DNA of 22,404 bases, from IMG/VR virus record IMGVR_UViG_3300046313_000220, positions 1 to 22,404 of that record; one strand, written 5' to 3'. Shown in pieces: positions 5,184-21,073 of the stretch. The DNA is from a virus. A model generated the notes under the pieces. The model ran no database searches, was not told the DNA's origin, and saw only the letters and a list, made by a program, of their open reading frames with translations. The translations under genes and the position numbers were made by a program. The first letter of the stretch is position 1, and each line of letters begins with the position of its first letter.

Positions 5184-5357
5184 TTAATCAAAATGTTCAT
5201 CATACCACCAGAATTGCATAGTAGTATAAAAAAAAAATTTATCGGTAGTGATAATATTATATGGAGTGAACATCAAGTTTTTCCAAATAATTAGAGAATA
5301 TTTAAAGTCGCTCCAACCAAACATAATTTGTCTAAACGACCATTTATATGGAGTCAT
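5184..5357 (-). CDS. 57-residue aromatic-rich small protein, paralogue of the gene at 6113-6301
   Basis: Begins MTPYKWSFRQIMFGWSDFKY and ends in FWWYDEHFD. Its ATG (5357) lies inside the end of the HNH gene, overlapping by 14 bp. It aligns with the small protein on the other side of the HNH gene: GWSDFKYSLIIWKNLMFTP here against GYTDIKDSYDHWKLLMFNP there, then FW-W-[YH] near both C-termini. The conserved Trp, Phe and WKxLMFxP residues argue that both are real genes and that they are duplicates. No known function or domain. It is the last gene before the bidirectional terminator. Confidence 0.65.
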   Translation of the reverse strand: MTPYKWSFRQIMFGWSDFKYSLIIWKNLMFTPYNIITTDKFFFYTTMQFWWYDEHFD

Positions 5358-6090
5358 TTTTTAAGCCTTGTAATTTAATATTATTAACATAAGCTTCAAT
5401 AGGTATATCCCAAGTTGATTGATTTTCTAGATGCGCTTGAATTAATTGGTCTAGTTTTATCTGATGGTCTGGTGAGAATTGGATAGTATGATCTGGCAAC
5501 CAATTAGGAGTTTCTTTGAGGTATCTTTTTGGTGTAACTAAACCTGATTTAGTGCCGAACTGATAGTGAATATTTTGAAGGTAATTAAGTTCTTTGGCAC
5601 CAAAATTTATACATTTGCCATGTATTCTTGGCATGGCAATTTTTGTTAGATAGCTAGTACCACTATTATTATATCTTATACCAATAGATAGTCCAGATTT
5701 TTTCTTCATTAACACTGTATTAAACCAATGAGTACATAATTCCAAATTAGACAATATATTGTTACTAGGATCTCCGTCGATATGATTGATTACATAATTG
5801 CGATTAGTTTTTACTTCATATACTAATTCATGAATATATACAATTTGACCATTTTTACCTGTATTAAATCTACCTTCATTATCAGCACAAAAATTATATT
5901 GTTTTAATAGATTTATTTTATCTAGTTCTACAGTATTGGTATAAATTTTGCCAGTCTTTGTATTGAGTACATAAAGTTTATCATCTACAAATAATTGATT
6001 ATATGTTAATGCACCAGTATGGGATTTATATATATTATGATGAGGTTGATCAAATTGATAAAGATTGAGTGTTATGTCAAAGTGAATCAT
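5344..6090 (-). CDS. HNH homing endonuclease with AP2-like DNA-binding region
   Basis: 248 residues. The HNH block is LVYEVKTNRNYVINHIDGDP followed by SNNILSNLELCTHWFN (about residues 89-125), the HNH_3-type 'N/HHIDGDxxNN.L.NLE..T...N' signature. It is followed by GIRYNNSGTSYLTKIAMPR and an INFGAKEL segment (about 139-170) that resemble the AP2 fold joined to many phage HNH enzymes. The C-terminal ~80 residues (WLPDHTIQFSPDHQIKLDQL and on) may bind DNA. It sits between two paralogous small genes, as expected of an invading homing gene. A shortened, stop-containing copy of the same gene lies at 15886-16179, showing past spread within this genome. The gene appears intact. Confidence 0.85.
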   Translation of the reverse strand: MIHFDITLNLYQFDQPHHNIYKSHTGALTYNQLFVDDKLYVLNTKTGKIYTNTVELDKINLLKQYNFCADNEGRFNTGKNGQIVYIHELVYEVKTNRNYVINHIDGDPSNNILSNLELCTHWFNTVLMKKKSGLSIGIRYNNSGTSYLTKIAMPRIHGKCINFGAKELNYLQNIHYQFGTKSGLVTPKRYLKETPNWLPDHTIQFSPDHQIKLDQLIQAHLENQSTWDIPIEAYVNNIKLQGLKNDSI

Positions 6091-7456: not shown

Positions 7457-8009
7457 TTATTGATGTTGCCAAGATTTTCCATTTATTATTCTATAAATGG
7501 TTTTTCTATTGACATTAAACGTTGTTGCTATTTGTTTTTGAGAAACATTTTTTTTATATAGTATCTTAATTTCTTCGATATCCTTTTCAGTTAATTTTGC
7601 ACATCCATTTTGTATACCAATATTTTTTCCCTTCACTGATTTAGATATATTATCTTTATGTTCTTTTGTTAGAGATTTGCCCTTTTTCGCATCAGATAAT
7701 TTCTTTTTAATTTCATTAGACATAATATGTCCAGGTTTAAACCCACTGGAAGAATATCATGTTCATACAATTCACGTCACTATAATGTTTTTCTATCCAC
7801 AACTCTTCTGCTATATACAAATCTTCTATCGAACTGTATATGCCTAAAATTATTTTGGATAATTTATTTTTATCTTTAATTTTTCTAATCCAAACACCCG
7901 AACCAAAATACCCGTCATTTAATATATCTTTTTTTGTTGTTGAGTGTCTGCCGATATAATACTTATCATTCCCTTCCAATAATGTTTTATAAACGTAATG
8001 AGTAACCAC
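7457..8009 (-). pseudogene. GIY-YIG homing endonuclease (Seg-like), broken by one frameshift
   Basis: The N-terminal half (8009-7737, probable GTG start at 8009) has HYVYKT (about residues 4-9), YYIGRHS and DGYFGSG, typical of GIY-YIG nucleases of the T4 Seg type, and a later conserved Glu in AEELWIEKHY. It runs into a stop just after CMNM. The C-terminal half resumes in another frame near 7755: SSGFKPGHIMSNEIKKKLSD, then NUMOD3-type repeats (AKKGKSLTKEHKDNISKSVKG) and a helix-turn-helix (VSQKQIATTFNVNRKTIYRI). One indel between about 7740 and 7770 would restore a ~185-residue enzyme. The frame also extends upstream of 8009 into the preceding gene, which I regard as spurious. Either a decayed homing gene or a sequencing error. 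Confidence 0.75.
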
Positions 8010-9981: not shown

Positions 9982-10803
9982 TTAAGCAGAGTGTAATAAT
10001 GATATTAATTGAATAGATTCATTTTGATAATGCTGTTTTCGAGCAGCAGAATAAGCAGCAGCAGTAGCAGAATCAGCAGCAGCAGAATAAGCAGCAGCAG
10101 TAGCAGTAGCAGAATAAGCAGCAGTAGCAGAATAAGCAGCAGTAGCAGAATAAGCAGCAGCAGAAGCAGAATAAGCAGCAGTAGCAGAATCAGCAGCAGC
10201 AGTAGCAGTAGCAGAATCAGCAGCAGCAGTAGCAGAATAAGCAGCACAAGCAGCAGAATAAGCAGCAGCAGTAGCAGAATAAGCAGCAGCAGCAGTAGCA
10301 TAATCAACAGAATAAGCAGCAGAACGAGCAGCATACCATTCGTTTTTACTCACTTCCTGTATTAATGCCTTTTTATGTAATTCTGCTACATCTACTATAC
10401 ACTCATCATTACTAAATCTGATTACTCCTCGTTCTGGATCTAATAATCTCCATATAGCTAATTTGTGTAATACTGGTTGTAAACACACTCCTACTGGTAT
10501 AGCTTGTATAGATTCTAAAGGAAATCTCATAGCATCATCATTAGGCAATCCTTCAAATATATTATCAAATAAATAGCATATCCATTCTGGTAATCCAAAA
10601 AAATTACTCATATCTTTATGAGAATTAGAATGAATGCAACAACCTACATGACACCCCTTACCATTTTGCCAATAGTGACCTTTAATTATTTGATCGTGGG
10701 CATAGTGGGATTGTAGTTGATATAGGAGATCTTGTTTGAGTTGGTCATTACCATAGAAAGATAAATTATTGTAACGAGTGTAGGAGTGGGTATAGTCGAT
10801 CAT
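9982..10803 (-). CDS. Protein with conserved N-terminal domain and long Ala/Ser/Tyr repeat
   Basis: 273 residues in three parts. Residues 1-155 form a conserved domain known only as a family of unknown function in bacteria and phages: YGNDQLKQDLLYQLQSHYAHDQIIKGHYW, then GKGCHVGCCIHS (about 49-60), then FGLPEWICYLFDNIFEGLPND, then IPVGVCLQPVLHKLAIWRLLDP. Residues about 160-252 are a low-complexity repeat of A-A-Y-S-A-T units, probably one long helix. The C-terminus RKQHYQNESIQLISLLHSA is a short cap found after such repeats. A consensus early promoter (10828-10856) lies upstream. The repeat is a DNA microsatellite, so copy number may vary. Function unknown; early promoter and context suggest a host-takeover gene. 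Confidence 0.8.
   Translation of the reverse strand: MIDYTHSYTRYNNLSFYGNDQLKQDLLYQLQSHYAHDQIIKGHYWQNGKGCHVGCCIHSNSHKDMSNFFGLPEWICYLFDNIFEGLPNDDAMRFPLESIQAIPVGVCLQPVLHKLAIWRLLDPERGVIRFSNDECIVDVAELHKKALIQEVSKNEWYAARSAAYSVDYATAAAAYSATAAAYSAACAAYSATAAADSATATAAADSATAAYSASAAAYSATAAYSATAAYSATATAAAYSAAADSATAAAYSAARKQHYQNESIQLISLLHSA
10043..10335. repeat. AGC/AGT/AGA-type microsatellite encoding the Ala-rich repeat
   Basis: Plus-strand runs of AGCAGCAGT, AGCAGAATA and AGCAGAATC units cover about 290 bp in phase with the minus-strand codons (GCT GCT TAT TCT GCT ACT). All three frames on the plus strand and another on the minus strand stay open here as shadows. Such tracts expand and contract by slippage or recombination in multiples of 3, 6, 9 or 12 bases without breaking the frame. 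Confidence 0.9.
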
Positions 10804-10827
10804 GATGATTAATGTGATGATATAGTT

Positions 10828-10856
10828 ATCATATCATCACTGATTTAGATTGTCAA
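10828..10856 (-). promoter_or_regulatory. Consensus sigma-70 promoter for the Ala-repeat gene
   Basis: On the minus strand: TTGACA (10856-10851), a 17-bp spacer, TATGAT (10833-10828). The start site would fall about 7 bp further, leaving a short leader before the ATG at 10803. The -35 box is the end of a 51-bp module repeated at 17904-17954. Confidence 0.85.
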
Positions 10857-10901
10857 CTATTAATTTTGTGGTATGAGAGGGGTCTAGAATGCCCTGTAAG
10901 G
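10851..10901. repeat. 51-bp promoter-upstream module, copy A
   Basis: Matches copy B (17904-17954) at 47 of 51 positions by eye, in the same orientation. It contains the -35 TTGACA, an AT stretch (CACAAAATTAATAG) and a small hairpin AGGG-(10-base loop)-CCCT. The hairpin's outer A-T pair is G-C in copy B, a compensatory change. It begins directly after the stop of the truncated iscB. Confidence 0.85.
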
Positions 10902-10905
10902 GGGG

Positions 10906-11118
10906 TTAAATGGATTTAATGTATTTGTTATGGTCAACGCCGTGGGCGATATCTTGAGTAATATTATCTGAAGGTTCTGCGATTAATCGAATATAATAAA
11001 TACCCAAATCACTCCAATGTGGAGTAGCAAGATGCTGATTGACCATACGTCTAGCACGAGATGCTTTAGTAGGCATGAGCGGTAGACCGCTAGGAGATAA
11101 GACGGGTACTCTTTGCAT
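10906..11118 (-). pseudogene. iscB: Truncated IscB (PLMP/RRXRR domain only)
   Basis: 70 residues: MQRVPVLSPSGLPLMPTKAS, then RARRMV, then WSDLGIYYIRLIAEPSDNITQ, ending GVDHNKYIKSI. The start V-PVLS..G.PLMP....RAR is the PLMP (RRXRR) N-terminal domain of IscB, the OMEGA RNA-guided nuclease of IS200/IS605-type elements common in cyanobacteria. GVD near the end is where the RuvC-I motif GIDPG should begin, but Pro-Gly is replaced and the frame stops. Full IscB is about 400-500 residues, so bridge helix, RuvC and HNH parts are absent and there is no nuclease. The stop is followed within a few bases by the repeated promoter module, suggesting truncation by recombination there. It could persist as a small guide-RNA-binding peptide, but decay is simpler. 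Confidence 0.8.
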
Positions 11119-11345
11119 AGAGATAATCCTAAGAGTAATAAAGTTAACGGTTCCTTAGACCAACATATCCAAGATGTCCTATTTAATAGAATCTAAACAA
11201 TTAGATTTATAGAGGTACAGACTAGGAAAATATCTGAACGTATATACCAGGATATGTATTGTAGATGTGGTCTAACCACAAATGATCTAGACAAGACTTG
11301 AGTTAGATATATTGTTATATCCAAGCCACGGGGTTAACCCCGTGG
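11119..11345 (-). ncRNA. Candidate IscB omega-RNA-like structured leader
   Basis: This 227-bp gap upstream of the iscB fragment is where IscB omega RNAs are encoded. It holds several pairings: a hairpin TGTGGT/ACCACA with 3-base loop (11266-11280), AATCTAA/TTAGATT (11190-11207), a long-range pair ACATATCC (11163-11170) with GGATATGT (11250-11257), and the palindrome at 11326-11345. Position, size and density of stems fit an omega RNA; no sequence signature proves it. If so, the guide would lie at its 5' end, next to the end of gene 46. Confidence 0.5.
11326..11345. repeat. Perfect 20-bp palindrome after gene 46
   Basis: CCACGGGGTTAACCCCGTGG, a very GC-rich hairpin in AT-rich surroundings, starting 9 bp after the gene 46 stop. 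No T run follows on either strand, so it is not a standard terminator. It may mark the end of the IscB-type element or be the 5' hairpin of its RNA. Confidence 0.85.
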
Positions 11346-11354
11346 TTCTTGACC

Positions 11355-14084
11355 TTAGTTAGTGGGGTAGGCTATTTTGGTGAATCCATCGACTTTAGAA
11401 AATTGCATCACTCGATCAAAATCATCGATAGCAACATCTTCTCGATGAGTAATAATCATAATATTATGATCGACCATCTGGTTAATAATACTCATCAAAT
11501 TATTGTTAGAATCATAATCTAAAGAACTATCAAACACTTCATCCATTATCAATATATTAGTACTATTAGCACTATTTAAAGACGCAAGATCTCTAAATGA
11601 GAGCATAATTGCTAGAGATATTTTCATCTTTTCTCCCTCACTAAATGATTCATAAGAAAAATTCTGTTTATCCCTAGCACATATAATTTCTTTAAATAAT
11701 GAATTAAATGTGAAATTTATGTTTAATCCAAATATGTTGAGATAATTATTGATATAGCTATTGAAATATGGTAAATATTTTTCTAGAATTTTTGATTTAA
11801 TCCCAGAATCAGACAACAACTTAACCACTATATCATAATTATTTTTATCTACTTTCAATAAATCCAATTTATTATATAATGACTCTAAATTAGCTTTAGT
11901 GTTAGTCAATTTATCATTATATTCAGTTATATCAGAATTATTTGATTTTGGAATTACGATAGATAATCGGCTAATTCGATTATCTATAGATGTTAGTTCA
12001 CTATTCAAATTTTTCATTTTTTGAGCATGTTCTGTTTTTCTACTAGTCAACTTTTGAATATCTGACAAGATAGCTTGTCCAGAATTAAGTTTTTTAGTGG
12101 CTATATCTAATTTAGTTTCAAAGGATTGTATATCACTCTTAAATTTTAATATAGAATCCCTTTTTAATGTAGGATCTATAGATTGAGTACAAGTAGGGCA
12201 AGTATTGTTACTCTCGTAAAATTTAATTTGTTTGTTGTCCAATTTGATTGCAGCATTACAATCACTTACATAAGTTTTAAGCTTAGTGATATGTGGCTGC
12301 GGATCGCTGAAACCAGATAACTCTAACTCTAGTTTATCCTTTTCTAGCATCAATAAATTGATATTTTTATTGATAGAGTCTTTCTCTAAATTTAATCTAT
12401 TAATTTCTTCACTATTATCCACCACAGTGGTATTGGTGATAGTATTGATGAATGATTGTATTAATACTACTTGCTCATTATTTGATTTGATGTCATTTGA
12501 TATAGATTTAATCTCATCATATAACTCTTTATTTCGCTCTTTAGCCACCACTAACATTTCTGCAAAGATTTTTATATCTAGCAGTTCTTCAATTAGTGTA
12601 CGCCGCACCAATACTGGCTGCTCCATAAAAGGAATATAATTACAACTACCCAATATAGCGATATTAGAAAATGTTAGATAGTTGATTTTAATGATATGAT
12701 CTTCAAGATATTTCTGTTGTTCCTTTACTGAAGACAATTCGTTAAGTTTTTCACCATTAATGTATATATCAAATACATTTGGCTGCTGTCCTCTGACAAT
12801 TTTGTATTCATTATTAGATGAAGAAAATTCTAATTCTACCAGTAATTGTGCTTTATTGGTAGAATTGATTAGTTGACTTTTATTTATATTTCTGTATGCT
12901 ACACCGTATAGTGCATACACAATAGAATCTAGCAATGTCGAACTATTATGGGTCAATTTAAACCCAGTAGTCACATATAATTGATCTTCTGCATCAACGG
13001 TGATACATACTTGTTCTTCCTGATAACCATTCTGTACGATCTCACTAATCGTTGATTGCATAGAACGTCTGGATGGTCGCCATCTGTCATCATGTAATTT
13101 GAATGGGCATACTGGCAATCTGAATGACAAATTCCAGCAATTACCAGACTTATAATGGGTACGATTATCTGCAATTGGTTCACATGCTCGTCCACCCAAC
13201 GATCTTACCAAATCTCTTACTAAAACAATTAAATTGATAGAAGTAGAACTAAAACTAGATCGTGGTCTACCATCTGCTTTTGATAATCCTACACAACCAT
13301 TGCTATCTAATAATCCCTGTAGTAATTCTAGTCTCGATTGATAATCCCATAGCAACCAATCACTATGATCTTTGTGTAAATTTTTATCATGTGATAAACC
13401 ACTATCACGATACTTTGCTATTTCTGGATGAATAGCAGACCAACTATATCCAGATTGTGCAGAATGACCACCATTATTTCTTGAATTAGTAGGAATCCCC
13501 AGAGAAGATTCTAATAGTGGCAGTAGTTTAGATTCAATTCTGTCATCATATGAAACCTTTAGTTGTCCTTGACTAAAACAACCATTACCAAGACAATAAC
13601 CTAGTGCATATCCAAAACTAACAGAGATACCTTCTTGGAGTCCGTCAAATTTAGGTAACGTATATCTTGCAGTATTATCTGATGATTTTCTCACACCATT
13701 GTCAATTAATTCTTGAGTAGTTTTGGTAATTAATACATTTTTACCATGTCTTTTTACCCATACAGACCATAGATGGTCTTTACCACATCGTATATCCACC
13801 CCATCCATAGTCTTTACCGTGTATACATCTTTCACTCCTTGAGGATGGATAGACAATACTTTGATGGGTGTGCCAGCAGAACCAATCACATAGTCACCAG
13901 GACGAATAGCACCCATAGTAGACCAACCTAAAGGAGTTAGAACTGGTTCTGATATTGGTGCTTCTTTACCCGTCCCATTAGACCCTACAACAATAGTTTT
14001 ATTGTGGTTACACAAATCTATTTCTATTGGCACATTACCAACAGAAATGAAATTTTTTATTTTGAGTTTTTTTAGTAAGATCAT
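11355..14084 (-). CDS. 46: Recombination nuclease ATPase subunit gp46 (Rad50-like/SbcC), interrupted by an intein
   Basis: Gp46 is the SMC-like ATPase that, with gp47 nuclease, resects DNA ends for T4-type recombination-dependent replication. The 909-residue precursor contains a 340-residue intein (41-380); the spliced protein of 569 residues matches T4 gp46 (560). Visible in the precursor: Walker A GSNGTGK (34-40) rejoining with SS (381-382) after splicing, zinc hook CPTC (629-632) between coiled coils, ABC signature SEGEK (815-819), Walker B ILIMDE (844-849) and D-loop SSLD. The ATG follows the previous stop directly (TAGATG). Without splicing the ATPase would be dead, so the intein must be removed for function. 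Confidence 0.96.
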   Translation of the reverse strand: MILLKKLKIKNFISVGNVPIEIDLCNHNKTIVVGSNGTGKEAPISEPVLTPLGWSTMGAIRPGDYVIGSAGTPIKVLSIHPQGVKDVYTVKTMDGVDIRCGKDHLWSVWVKRHGKNVLITKTTQELIDNGVRKSSDNTARYTLPKFDGLQEGISVSFGYALGYCLGNGCFSQGQLKVSYDDRIESKLLPLLESSLGIPTNSRNNGGHSAQSGYSWSAIHPEIAKYRDSGLSHDKNLHKDHSDWLLWDYQSRLELLQGLLDSNGCVGLSKADGRPRSSFSSTSINLIVLVRDLVRSLGGRACEPIADNRTHYKSGNCWNLSFRLPVCPFKLHDDRWRPSRRSMQSTISEIVQNGYQEEQVCITVDAEDQLYVTTGFKLTHNSSTLLDSIVYALYGVAYRNINKSQLINSTNKAQLLVELEFSSSNNEYKIVRGQQPNVFDIYINGEKLNELSSVKEQQKYLEDHIIKINYLTFSNIAILGSCNYIPFMEQPVLVRRTLIEELLDIKIFAEMLVVAKERNKELYDEIKSISNDIKSNNEQVVLIQSFINTITNTTVVDNSEEINRLNLEKDSINKNINLLMLEKDKLELELSGFSDPQPHITKLKTYVSDCNAAIKLDNKQIKFYESNNTCPTCTQSIDPTLKRDSILKFKSDIQSFETKLDIATKKLNSGQAILSDIQKLTSRKTEHAQKMKNLNSELTSIDNRISRLSIVIPKSNNSDITEYNDKLTNTKANLESLYNKLDLLKVDKNNYDIVVKLLSDSGIKSKILEKYLPYFNSYINNYLNIFGLNINFTFNSLFKEIICARDKQNFSYESFSEGEKMKISLAIMLSFRDLASLNSANSTNILIMDEVFDSSLDYDSNNNLMSIINQMVDHNIMIITHREDVAIDDFDRVMQFSKVDGFTKIAYPTN
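12945..13964 (-). mobile_element. Class 3-type intein in the Walker A loop of gp46, with degenerate LAGLIDADG endonuclease
   Basis: 340 residues, Glu41 to Asn380 of the precursor, placed between Lys40 and Ser381 of the P-loop. The first residue is Glu, not Cys/Ser. Block B reads DHLW (His104, Trp106), block F QVCITVD (Cys360) and block G LTHN|S (Thr378, His379, Asn380, Ser381). Trp, Cys and Thr at these places are the WCT signature of class 3 inteins, which use the block-F Cys as first nucleophile and are known for P-loop ATPase sites. The central domain has two LAGLIDADG helices, ALGYCLGNG (160-168) and LQGLLDSNG (255-263). In both, the catalytic Asp is Asn, so the nuclease is probably inactive. 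Confidence 0.88.
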
Positions 14085-18200: not shown

Positions 18201-18638
18201 TTATAAATTTTTATAAATATTCTCCAAAGAATTTTTGATCGAAATCATCTCAGGAGAATTTTGATTATTATCCACCCCAACTTCTTGTAACACTCCAGTA
18301 TATTCAACAGAATTGAGATACATATTGTAATATTCAAACATAGTAGGACTCATATCTCCCCAGACTACTACATCTTTTTGATTCATATGAAACGTATTAT
18401 CAGAACTATTACTCATCCACGGTGATAACTGGTAGTTCATAATCATCCGACCACCAGAAATAATTGTTATTGGTCTAACCACCAGTGGATCGGTAATATA
18501 AAAAGACCCGTCTTCTTGTTCTTCAAGATCGTCTGGGATATTGACAAATCCAATAATTTCCTCATTTGTAACTAATTTAATAGCAGCAAAGAATTCTAAA
18601 TCTTGATTTTCAGCTTTTGAGTCTGGAGTTAACATCAT
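18201..18638 (-). CDS. LSm/Hfq-like conserved small protein downstream of uvsW
   Basis: 145 residues; its ATG overlaps the uvsW stop (ATGATG over TGA). The start LEFFAAIKLVTNEEIIGFVN (about 14-33), then FYITDPLVVRPI (46-57) and YQLSPWM (70-76) follow the pattern of an Sm-like fold ('KL.nGEeIIg.v.....i.dPl.i.......l.PWm') found in small proteins encoded beside uvsW in T4-like cyanophages. The role is not established; RNA binding is only suggested by the fold. The C-terminal 50 residues (Asn/Gln-rich) look flexible. Codon use resembles neighbours. Confidence 0.7.
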   Translation of the reverse strand: MMLTPDSKAENQDLEFFAAIKLVTNEEIIGFVNIPDDLEEQEDGSFYITDPLVVRPITIISGGRMIMNYQLSPWMSNSSDNTFHMNQKDVVVWGDMSPTMFEYYNMYLNSVEYTGVLQEVGVDNNQNSPEMISIKNSLENIYKNL

Positions 18639-21073
18639 TTTTTCTTTATTAAATCTATTTCTGTTATGTTAAATTCTAATTCTTCTTCGGAATAATATTT
18701 GATTCTGTCCATCAAATGATCGATAGTATAATTTTTTATATTACCTACACTAATGTTATCCGCGATATCATATATAGTAGCACGTTGTTTAGAATCATGC
18801 AAACGTAAACCTCTCCCTATACTCTGTAAATTGCGTATTCTAGATTTATTTGGTGATGCGAATATGATATTATGTAGGTTTTTAATATTTATACCTTGTT
18901 GGTATGTCTGGTAGGATGCTATTATCACACCATTTTGTTCGGTTTCTACTAATTGTCTAATTCTTTCTCTCTCGTCACTACTAATTTTTCCATATACTAA
19001 ATGTATACTTTTTTCTGGTAGTTCTTTAGTGAACTGTTCATATAGTGGCAGACCTTGTTGTTCTACTCTACTGAATAATACCAAAGTATTGCCTTTTAGT
19101 CTAGAAACTAAATTTTTGATAAAGTTATTTCTAATTTGGTGAGTGACTAGATATTCTAATTCTTCTGTGTACGTTGCAAACATTCGATATGGGTGCTTCA
19201 GAATAAGAATTTTAATAAAAACATCACTAATTTGTTTATTTTTAATTAGTTCGGTAGTAGTGACTACTTGTTTACAGTCACCAAATAAACCCATTAATTG
19301 TAATTTATTAGCTTTAGCACCATCTAGAGTACCAGTAAATCCAAATCTATATTTACATTGATCTAGATGTTGTAGGATGATAGTCAATGATTTGGCAACA
19401 GCAGTGTGGCAATTGCCTGTTATAACAACTTTACCATTGTGGCGAACAACAATATTTCCTGTTGGCACTTTCACACAATAAACTTTGCCATTATAATCGA
19501 TTTCAGATTTAGTTATACCTCGACAACCTATTCTATTAATATGTTTACTAATAAATAATCTATAAACATCATTAAACGTATCAGATCTATTATCAACTTG
19601 AACGGTTTGATTAGTGTGGTAATTACATAGCACCGCCATCGCCTGATAAAAATCAACATTGGCTTTAATAGTTGAACTATAGTAGTATAAACCATTTTTT
19701 GTAATACTTCCATCCCAACAAACCATTTCTTCAATAATTTGTCTACATACATCTAGTGACAATTCCGCAATATTAAAATAATCTGATATATTTTTATAAG
19801 CGTATGAAATGCCACTCACCAAAAATCTTCTTTTATCCTTTACGTTGCCATTACGTTCAGTTCCCTTGACTTCTCTAAAATTAAAGTCACCTTTAGACAT
19901 AATATCTAAAAATTTATTTATTTTACGTTGTTTTGAAAACGTAAAATCTAAAGTTAAAGTTCCATTTATATCAGTGTGCCACAAACTACCATCCGCTTGG
20001 AAAGCAATTAATAACTTATCTAATTCAGTCAATTCTGTTTTAATATTTGATGTTGTCAAACCACAAGTTTTAATAGTCCAATTACCATTATTATAACTAA
20101 CATCTTTATGAGACTTTTTAACATGATTTATTTTATTAAAAAGTAAAATTTCGTGATTTGGTGTGGTAGTTAAGCTTATTCTTCTGTCAGAACTAGCATT
20201 AATCAATTTTCCACTATAGTCATTTTCAATATAACAAATTGGTTTTACAAAAGATATTTCATTTGTGTCTGAATCATATTGGGCAACTAATTCAGTTTTA
20301 TCTAAACAATCAAATCTAACAAATCCTTTATTGGTGAGTATTTCTGTATCTGGGGTAAAGCATTCGTCCACTTGAACGCATCCATACTGTTTGAAATATG
20401 ATTTAGGCTGAGTATATATACCTTGCCACGTAGACATCACTATTGGTTTATCTGATTGTTTTTCACGATCTTCAAATATTTCATGAATTAATCTAACATC
20501 CATACCATAACTAACAAATTCTTTTTTAGTTTGTATTACTAAACTAGTATTTGGAAAAATTATCAAGACTTTAGTAAAATCTTTATAATAATTAGCCAAA
20601 ATATAAAGAGACATGCTCTTGCCGCTACTTGTTGGAGACAGTATTAATTTTCTATTATTAAATATACACTCCTTAACAGTATCTATCTGATAATCTCTAA
20701 GAGAAAATGGCAATTTTAGAGATTTTATATATGTATCTACATCGTAATTACATTTTTCATTTACATCTGGTGAGATTTCATATGTATAATTATTATCCTT
20801 CAGAAAATTGGTGAGATGATCTAGTAGTCCATAATATAATTGCCCACCAGTAACAGAGAATAATCTGATTTTTCCGTCCCACGCACCATTCTTATATGCT
20901 GGCATATATTTGTAGCCAGATACTTCAAATGAGTAATAATCATTCAATATATATCTCAGTTCAGCATCACACTCTACAATAATGTAGAGTTCATTCTTTT
21001 TTTTAATCCTAACGTCAGTCATGAATGCCCCAAAACCTTTAATAAATTTATAGAATGGCACAAAGTATCTCAT
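18635..21073 (-). CDS. uvsW: Recombination helicase UvsW, interrupted by an intein
   Basis: SF2 DNA/RNA helicase that dissociates R-loops and drives branch migration and fork regression, helping the switch from origin to recombination-dependent replication. The precursor has 812 residues; removing the 317-residue intein (238-554) leaves 495, close to T4 UvsW (503). Motifs: N-terminal DNA-binding region (about 20-95), Q-like SLRDYQ, Walker A SPTSSGKS (146-153), DEAH-type box VDE-CH (235-237 + 555-556) split by the intein, motif III FTGTLDG (579-585) and motif VI SIGRGLRLHDSKQR. The likelier start is Met18 (21022), where MTDVRIKKKNELYI matches other UvsW starts. The extra 17 codons overlap a leader with inverted repeats. 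Confidence 0.95.
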   Translation of the reverse strand: MRYFVPFYKFIKGFGAFMTDVRIKKKNELYIIVECDAELRYILNDYYSFEVSGYKYMPAYKNGAWDGKIRLFSVTGGQLYYGLLDHLTNFLKDNNYTYEISPDVNEKCNYDVDTYIKSLKLPFSLRDYQIDTVKECIFNNRKLILSPTSSGKSMSLYILANYYKDFTKVLIIFPNTSLVIQTKKEFVSYGMDVRLIHEIFEDREKQSDKPIVMSTWQGIYTQPKSYFKQYGCVQVDECFTPDTEILTNKGFVRFDCLDKTELVAQYDSDTNEISFVKPICYIENDYSGKLINASSDRRISLTTTPNHEILLFNKINHVKKSHKDVSYNNGNWTIKTCGLTTSNIKTELTELDKLLIAFQADGSLWHTDINGTLTLDFTFSKQRKINKFLDIMSKGDFNFREVKGTERNGNVKDKRRFLVSGISYAYKNISDYFNIAELSLDVCRQIIEEMVCWDGSITKNGLYYYSSTIKANVDFYQAMAVLCNYHTNQTVQVDNRSDTFNDVYRLFISKHINRIGCRGITKSEIDYNGKVYCVKVPTGNIVVRHNGKVVITGNCHTAVAKSLTIILQHLDQCKYRFGFTGTLDGAKANKLQLMGLFGDCKQVVTTTELIKNKQISDVFIKILILKHPYRMFATYTEELEYLVTHQIRNNFIKNLVSRLKGNTLVLFSRVEQQGLPLYEQFTKELPEKSIHLVYGKISSDERERIRQLVETEQNGVIIASYQTYQQGINIKNLHNIIFASPNKSRIRNLQSIGRGLRLHDSKQRATIYDIADNISVGNIKNYTIDHLMDRIKYYSEEELEFNITEIDLIKKK
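19412..20362 (-). mobile_element. Intein with LAGLIDADG homing endonuclease in the DECH box of UvsW
   Basis: 317 residues, Cys238 to Asn554, inserted between Glu and Cys of VDE|CH. Splicing motifs: block A CFTPDTEILT (238-247), block B with TPNHEIL (His307), block F YCVKVPTGNIVVRH and block G VVITGN followed by Cys555. The penultimate residue is Gly, not the usual His, which in other inteins is tolerated or slows C-terminal cleavage. The two LAGLIDADG helices, LLIAFQADGSL (about 354-364) and EEMVCWDGSI (448-457), keep the catalytic aspartates, so the nuclease may be active and the element still mobile. It is a class 1 intein, unlike the one in gp46. Confidence 0.93.

What the first reader, a model, noticed from the sequence alone, without database searches (positions are those of the whole stretch)
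10906..11345. Phage-borne truncated IscB with an omega-RNA-like leader directly after gene 46
The 70-residue product is an almost textbook PLMP domain ending where RuvC-I begins. The 227 bp upstream is rich in stems and includes an 8-bp long-range pairing and a perfect GC palindrome. The pair looks like an OMEGA locus reduced to guide RNA plus RNA-binding N-terminus. It could be plain decay, or it could still make an RNA that acts with a host IscB in trans.
Basis: partly seen in the sequence, partly recalled or inferred. Interest (0 to 1): 0.72.

Follow-up and report, generated by a model that had tools for sequence, protein, structure and literature searches.

The report
Cyanophage guide-RNA element missing its nuclease
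A virus of cyanobacteria carries, right behind a DNA-repair gene, a well-preserved guide RNA of the IsrB (Cas9-ancestor) kind next to only the first fifth of the IsrB protein; it is most likely a decaying mobile element, though its RNA could still work with an IsrB from elsewhere.

Summary
The bases upstream of the 70-aa ORF are an OMEGA guide RNA (HEARO family). A covariance model built only from 22 leaders of intact relatives finds it at full length, 11353-11119(-), 111 bits, E 2e-28, ending exactly at the ATG. The window keeps 44 of 47 family base pairs, including a 5-bp pseudoknot, 17 of them through changes on both sides. The ORF is a complete PLMP domain (fold matches solved IsrB, 0.7 A over 48 columns) that stops just after the first RuvC aspartate. 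Relatives are IsrB (about 330-410 aa), common in cyanobacteria and cyanophages, so 'truncated IscB' is better read as 'truncated IsrB'. Two sister contigs carry the identical truncated locus, so an assembly error is unlikely.

Intact relatives sit just before an ATGA, the known IsrB target motif. Here the right end could not be found. The guide would be the last bases of gene 46; its last 18 bases occur in no other phage among 2.9 million viral contigs. Related copies are broken in many other ways. Best reading: a 3'-deleted, nuclease-less relic whose RNA is structurally intact. Activity in trans with another IsrB is untested but not excluded.

The parts
11119..11353 (-). omega RNA scaffold (HEARO / IsrB type), full length
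   Evidence: R1 model from 22 intact relatives: 111.4 bits, E 1.7e-28, 1-218/218; RF02033 52.8 bits; 44 of 47 family pairs kept
11326..11345 (-). perfect 20-nt palindrome = first stem loop of the omega RNA / left-end hairpin of the element
   Evidence: read directly; aligns with the helix 2 hairpin of the family
11250..11257 (-). 5' strand of the 8-bp long-range stem (ACAUAUCC)
11163..11170 (-). 3' strand of the 8-bp long-range stem (GGAUAUGU)
11224..11228 (-). hairpin loop UUCCU, 5' half of the pseudoknot
   Evidence: pairs with 11151-11155; one C-G to U-A double change unseen in 22 intact relatives
11151..11155 (-). AGGAA, 3' half of the pseudoknot
10906..11118 (-). 70-aa ORF: complete PLMP domain, ends just after the RuvC-I aspartate (D62); rest of IsrB absent
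   Evidence: PF14239 E 1.5e-9; predicted fold matches DtIsrB 8dmb, rmsd 0.7 over 48 columns; relatives about 330-410 aa
11354..11373 (-). predicted guide (20 nt): the last bases of gene 46 plus 1 base
   Evidence: inferred from its position next to the scaffold and from the published 20-nt IsrB guide (PMC9581776); no transcript tested
11355..14084 (-). gene 46 (SbcC-like recombination endonuclease subunit) with a long insert, upstream neighbour
10804..10905 (.). region where the lost RuvC/C-terminal part and right end would have been; no right end recognised; contains a promoter-like TTGACA-17-TATGAT on the - strand
   Evidence: no significant match to 14 right ends, p 0.2; promoter read by eye

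Best explanation
It is the left half of an IsrB-type OMEGA (HEARO) element that inserted directly behind gene 46 of a T4-like cyanophage and later lost everything after the start of RuvC-I by deletion. What remains is a structurally intact omega RNA whose guide would be the 3' end of gene 46, and a complete but isolated PLMP domain. The PLMP piece is not expected to nick DNA by itself, since RuvC and the target-motif-binding domain are gone, so the locus is most likely a relic with no nuclease function of its own. Shown: the RNA, its pairing, the domain, the truncation. Partly shown: the family's ATGA insertion rule. Inferred: deletion as the cause, guide use, loss of function.
For: Independent covariance model E 1.7e-28; pairs kept with compensation; PLMP by Pfam, PDB profile and fold; intact relatives of about 330-410 aa with the same RNA in Microcystis phages, other viral contigs and cyanobacteria; identical truncated locus in two sister contigs; related copies broken in many ways: frameshift, nested insertion, intron-like insertion, miniature with only the two ends, foreign ORF behind the RNA; no other IsrB in the 31.7-kb sister contig; published work shows that IsrB without PLMP loses nicking and that PLMP packs on RuvC and TI (PMC9581776).
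Against: The RNA is not visibly decaying: 44 of 47 pairs kept, one pseudoknot pair changed on both sides at a position that is C-G in 21 of 22 relatives. The PLMP piece is open and is predicted to fold with high confidence to residue 45. The element's right end was not found, so the extent of the deletion is unknown.
Confidence: 0.72

Rival explanations
1. The locus is a non-autonomous but working OMEGA element: the omega RNA, guided by the gene 46 3' end, loads into an IsrB made by the host or by a co-infecting phage, nicks gene 46 in phages that lack the insert, and so promotes spread of the insert.
For: RNA structure kept with lineage-specific compensatory pairs; PLMP-domain matches occur in 31 of 292 sampled cyanobacterial genomes and intact IsrB in other cyanophages; another cyanophage contig has a 196-bit omega RNA followed by an unrelated ORF while an intact IsrB lies about 2.4 kb away.
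Against: No target for the guide found: its last 18 bases occur only in this phage among viral contigs; no right end found; the compensations may predate the truncation; no IsrB in the sister contig, and the host is unknown.
Confidence: 0.15
2. The leader has been kept as a structured 3' UTR of gene 46 (stability or translation control), with the PLMP peptide binding its own ribosome-binding-site hairpin; the guide function is lost.
For: PLMP of DtIsrB contacts the terminal hairpin that holds the Shine-Dalgarno sequence, and a role in regulating expression was proposed (PMC9581776); the RNA follows the gene 46 stop codon by 1 base; AGGATTATCTC before the ATG is conserved.
Against: No phage with the same arrangement of independent origin; the fragment has lost W25 and G29 and shows the highest ratio of codon-position-2 to position-3 divergence of 27 sequences, though not as an outlier.
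Confidence: 0.08
3. Assembly artefact that joined a fragment of an intact element to the phage.
For: The locus is known from metagenome contigs only.
Against: Two other contigs agree with the window without a mismatch over 10.6 and 12.7 kb; the only differences are 18 bp of gaps, apparently in the repeat-rich gene.
Confidence: 0.02

Closest known systems
IsrB OMEGA nickase and its omega RNA (DtIsrB; cyanobacterial CwIsrB and DsIsrB; K2IsrB from a viral metagenome)
   Same: PLMP domain with matching fold (8dmb), omega RNA directly upstream of the ATG, stems and loop pseudoknot in line with the published group B layout, NTGA-type site at the right end of intact relatives
   Different: RuvC (except the first Asp) and the C-terminal WED and TI domains absent; right end not found
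HEARO RNA, Rfam RF02033
   Same: full-length match 1-211, 52.8 bits
   Different: below the gathering score of 83; the RNA of a Microcystis phage with intact IsrB also scores below it, 35 bits
Intact IsrB elements of Microcystis phages LMM01, MaMV-DC, CH01, DH01
   Same: cyanophage-borne, homologous RNA and PLMP, 50-54% identity over the 70 aa
   Different: complete 365-aa protein; different genomic place; right end and ATGA present
Miniature (left-end plus right-end) copy in Microcystis phage LMM01
   Same: non-autonomous derivative between two genes, starts next to a stop codon
   Different: it lacks the RNA core and PLMP; the window lacks the right end

Membership tests
IsrB OMEGA element | PLMP domain at the N-terminus | tested here: met
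   PF14239 E 1.5e-9; 8dmb fold match
IsrB OMEGA element | split RuvC nuclease, about 350 aa in all | tested here: not met
   ORF ends 8 residues after the first RuvC Asp; full-length IsrB queries match only residues 1-70
IsrB OMEGA element | C-terminal WED/TI domain reading the TAM | tested here: not met
   no match in the window or the 31.7-kb sister contig
IsrB OMEGA element | omega RNA directly upstream with S1, stem loops and pseudoknot | tested here: met
   R1 E 1.7e-28; 44/47 pairs
IsrB OMEGA element | guide taken from flanking DNA, site followed by NTGA | tested here: inconclusive
   gene 46 3' end lies where the guide should be; right-end/TAM junction not found; the downstream gene starts ATGA at 10803, 102 bases after the ORF
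IsrB OMEGA element | RNA-guided nicking of DNA | not testable with these tools
   needs a biochemical assay
IscB (with HNH) | HNH domain inserted in RuvC | tested here: not met
   that region is missing here, and the nearest intact relatives are too short for HNH and show none; NCBIfam IscB model only 14.9 bits against a cut-off of 175, expected in part from the truncation
HEARO RNA RF02033 | score at or above the curated gathering score 83 | tested here: not met
   52.8 bits; significant by E-value and by the lineage model
Miniature (MITE-like) element | both element ends present | tested here: inconclusive
   left end present; right end p 0.2

The most novel reading that the evidence does not exclude
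The phage keeps a nuclease-less omega RNA under selection because it works in trans with an IsrB from the host or a co-infecting phage, making the gene 46 3' end a homing target: a guide RNA that lives off someone else's nuclease.
Probability: 0.13. Interest if true: 0.72.

Novelty: new member of a known kind. Interest (0 to 1): 0.38.

Why it matters
It shows that IsrB elements, relatives of the ancestors of Cas9, move through cyanophages, sit at gene junctions and break down into RNA-only, PLMP-only and end-only remnants. If the RNA still acts in trans, it would be a natural nuclease-less guide RNA borne by a phage, and this is directly testable with known IsrB proteins.

Tried and rejected
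Recurrent PLMP-only class: ORFs of about 80-100 aa in host genomes, where inspected, turned out to be frameshifts, contig ends or an intron-like insertion, and in phages nested insertions, not a shared design. Right-end remnant CCCCCCTTACAGGGCATTCTAGACCCC after the ORF: looked good by eye, not significant (p 0.2). Empty-site or target search with the last 18 bases of the guide: only the same phage. Relatives of the downstream gene, for synteny: only the same phage. DNA-level relatives in annotated phages: none. Selection on the fragment by codon position: highest ratio of 27 sequences but not an outlier. The default HEARO search of whole records misses this RNA in the sister contigs, although it is identical there, so negative HEARO scans mean little. 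Altae-Tran 2021 and Weinberg 2009 could not be read.

Full report
WHAT IS THERE. On the minus strand, gene 46 (11355-14084) ends with TAA; one base later a structured RNA begins (11353) and runs to 11119, followed at once by the ATG of a 70-aa ORF (11118-10906). The Rfam gathering scan finds nothing in the window, but a targeted scan gives a full-length HEARO match, 52.8 bits, E 6.7e-10. The ORF matches Pfam RRXRR.

RELATIVES. The 70 aa match 365-aa RRXRR proteins of Microcystis phages LMM01, MaMV-DC, CH01, CH02 and DH01 at 50-54%, 56 loci in viral contigs (two of them are the same phage as the window) and proteins in cyanobacteria such as Microseira, Plectonema, Iningainema and Cyanomargarita. 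Most of the viral copies that do not run off their contig have open frames of about 330-390 aa. In the family alignment these proteins continue into RuvC-type sequence and show no HNH domain, which fits IsrB as described in PMC9581776. That paper also used an IsrB from a viral metagenome (K2IsrB), so virus-borne IsrB is known.

THE RNA. Leaders of 22 intact relatives were aligned without the window and made into a model. It finds the window at 111.4 bits, E 1.7e-28, over the whole model; most leaders of other copies in the cyanobacterial clade score 82-212 bits. On an alignment with the window added, the named structure (47 pairs, with S1 and a pseudoknot) has 91.6% of cells paired, against 69% in shuffles and 28-48% when slid. 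The window keeps 33 of 35 main pairs, 5 of 5 pseudoknot pairs and 6 of 7 S1 pairs; 17 pairs differ from the commonest pair on both sides, and three of these pair types are not seen in any of the 22 relatives, one of them in the pseudoknot. So the RNA structure has been held by selection along much of this lineage. Whether any of these changes came after the truncation cannot be told from one allele.

THE PROTEIN. A profile search of the PDB finds IsrB and IscB PLMP domains. The predicted fold (mean pLDDT 82; about 86-95 per block over residues 1-50) is strand-strand-helix-strand-strand and matches DtIsrB at 0.7 A over 48 columns. Losses at positions conserved in at least 90% of relatives are W25M, G29H, G64N and G69S; the last two lie at the break. 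Codon-position differences are slightly relaxed, not decisively. RuvC beyond the first Asp and the C-terminal part are absent from the window and from the longer sister contig. In the paper, removing PLMP abolishes nicking and PLMP packs on RuvC and TI; from this I infer that an isolated PLMP is not a nickase.

THE SITE. Right ends ending in ATGA (30) or GTGA (1) were recognised for 31 of 43 intact relatives; since the search pattern demands [AG]TGA this is not an independent test, but 23 of the 31 open an ORF of at least 40 aa at that place. One nested case shows the rule directly: an element split a PLMP gene exactly before ATGA. The published IsrB target motif is NTGA. In the window the left end is in the expected place, but no right end is recognised; the next gene starts ATGA at 10803, 102 bases after the ORF stop. 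The predicted guide is the gene 46 3' end; its last 18 bases occur in viral contigs only in the two sister contigs.

DECAY IN THE FAMILY. Related loci are broken in many ways: nested insertion, an omega RNA followed by an unrelated 118-aa ORF, frameshifts, an interruption right after DPGK by sequence that begins like a group II intron (by eye), and a miniature with only the two ends, inspected in LMM01, with equal weak hits in three related phages. This makes decay the simplest reading for the window. The identical locus in two sister contigs (no mismatch, 18 bp of gaps elsewhere) argues against an artefact and for a common state in this phage.

VERDICT. A nuclease-less relic of an IsrB element with a well-kept guide RNA: a new member of a known kind. 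A role in trans remains possible and testable.

Noticed in passing
NC_008562.1 about 91078-91207 (L189; equal weak hits in L190-L192): About 125-bp miniature of the IsrB element, left-end hairpin plus right-end hairpin and ATGA, between gp098 stop and gp099 start in Microcystis phage LMM01; R1 hits of equal score in three related phages.
   Followed up: partly
L044 422-1118: Omega RNA (196 bits) directly followed by an unrelated 118-aa ORF with no Pfam match, then an IsrB C-terminal remnant, right end and ATGA.
   Followed up: partly
L044 2431-3000: Omega RNA plus about 45 aa of PLMP, split by a second complete element inserted exactly before ATGA.
   Followed up: partly
L002 and L041, upstream of the omega RNA: Tandem partial copies of the omega RNA 5' end (GTCACTAACCC...) with short spacers, perhaps left by repeated insertions.
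   Followed up: no
L119 and L123: IsrB interrupted right after the DPGK motif by sequence beginning like a group II intron; read by eye only.
   Followed up: no
window 10042-10333: Repeat-rich downstream gene (Ala-Ala-Tyr-Ser); apparent length differences here (18 bp in all) are the only differences seen from the sister contigs over the compared 10.6-12.7 kb.
   Followed up: no
window 5344-6090, 7457-7723, 18635-21073, 11355-14084: HNH_3 endonuclease, NUMOD3/HTH protein, a helicase with intein signals, and a long insert in the gene 46 P-loop region: a phage rich in homing-type elements.
   Followed up: partly
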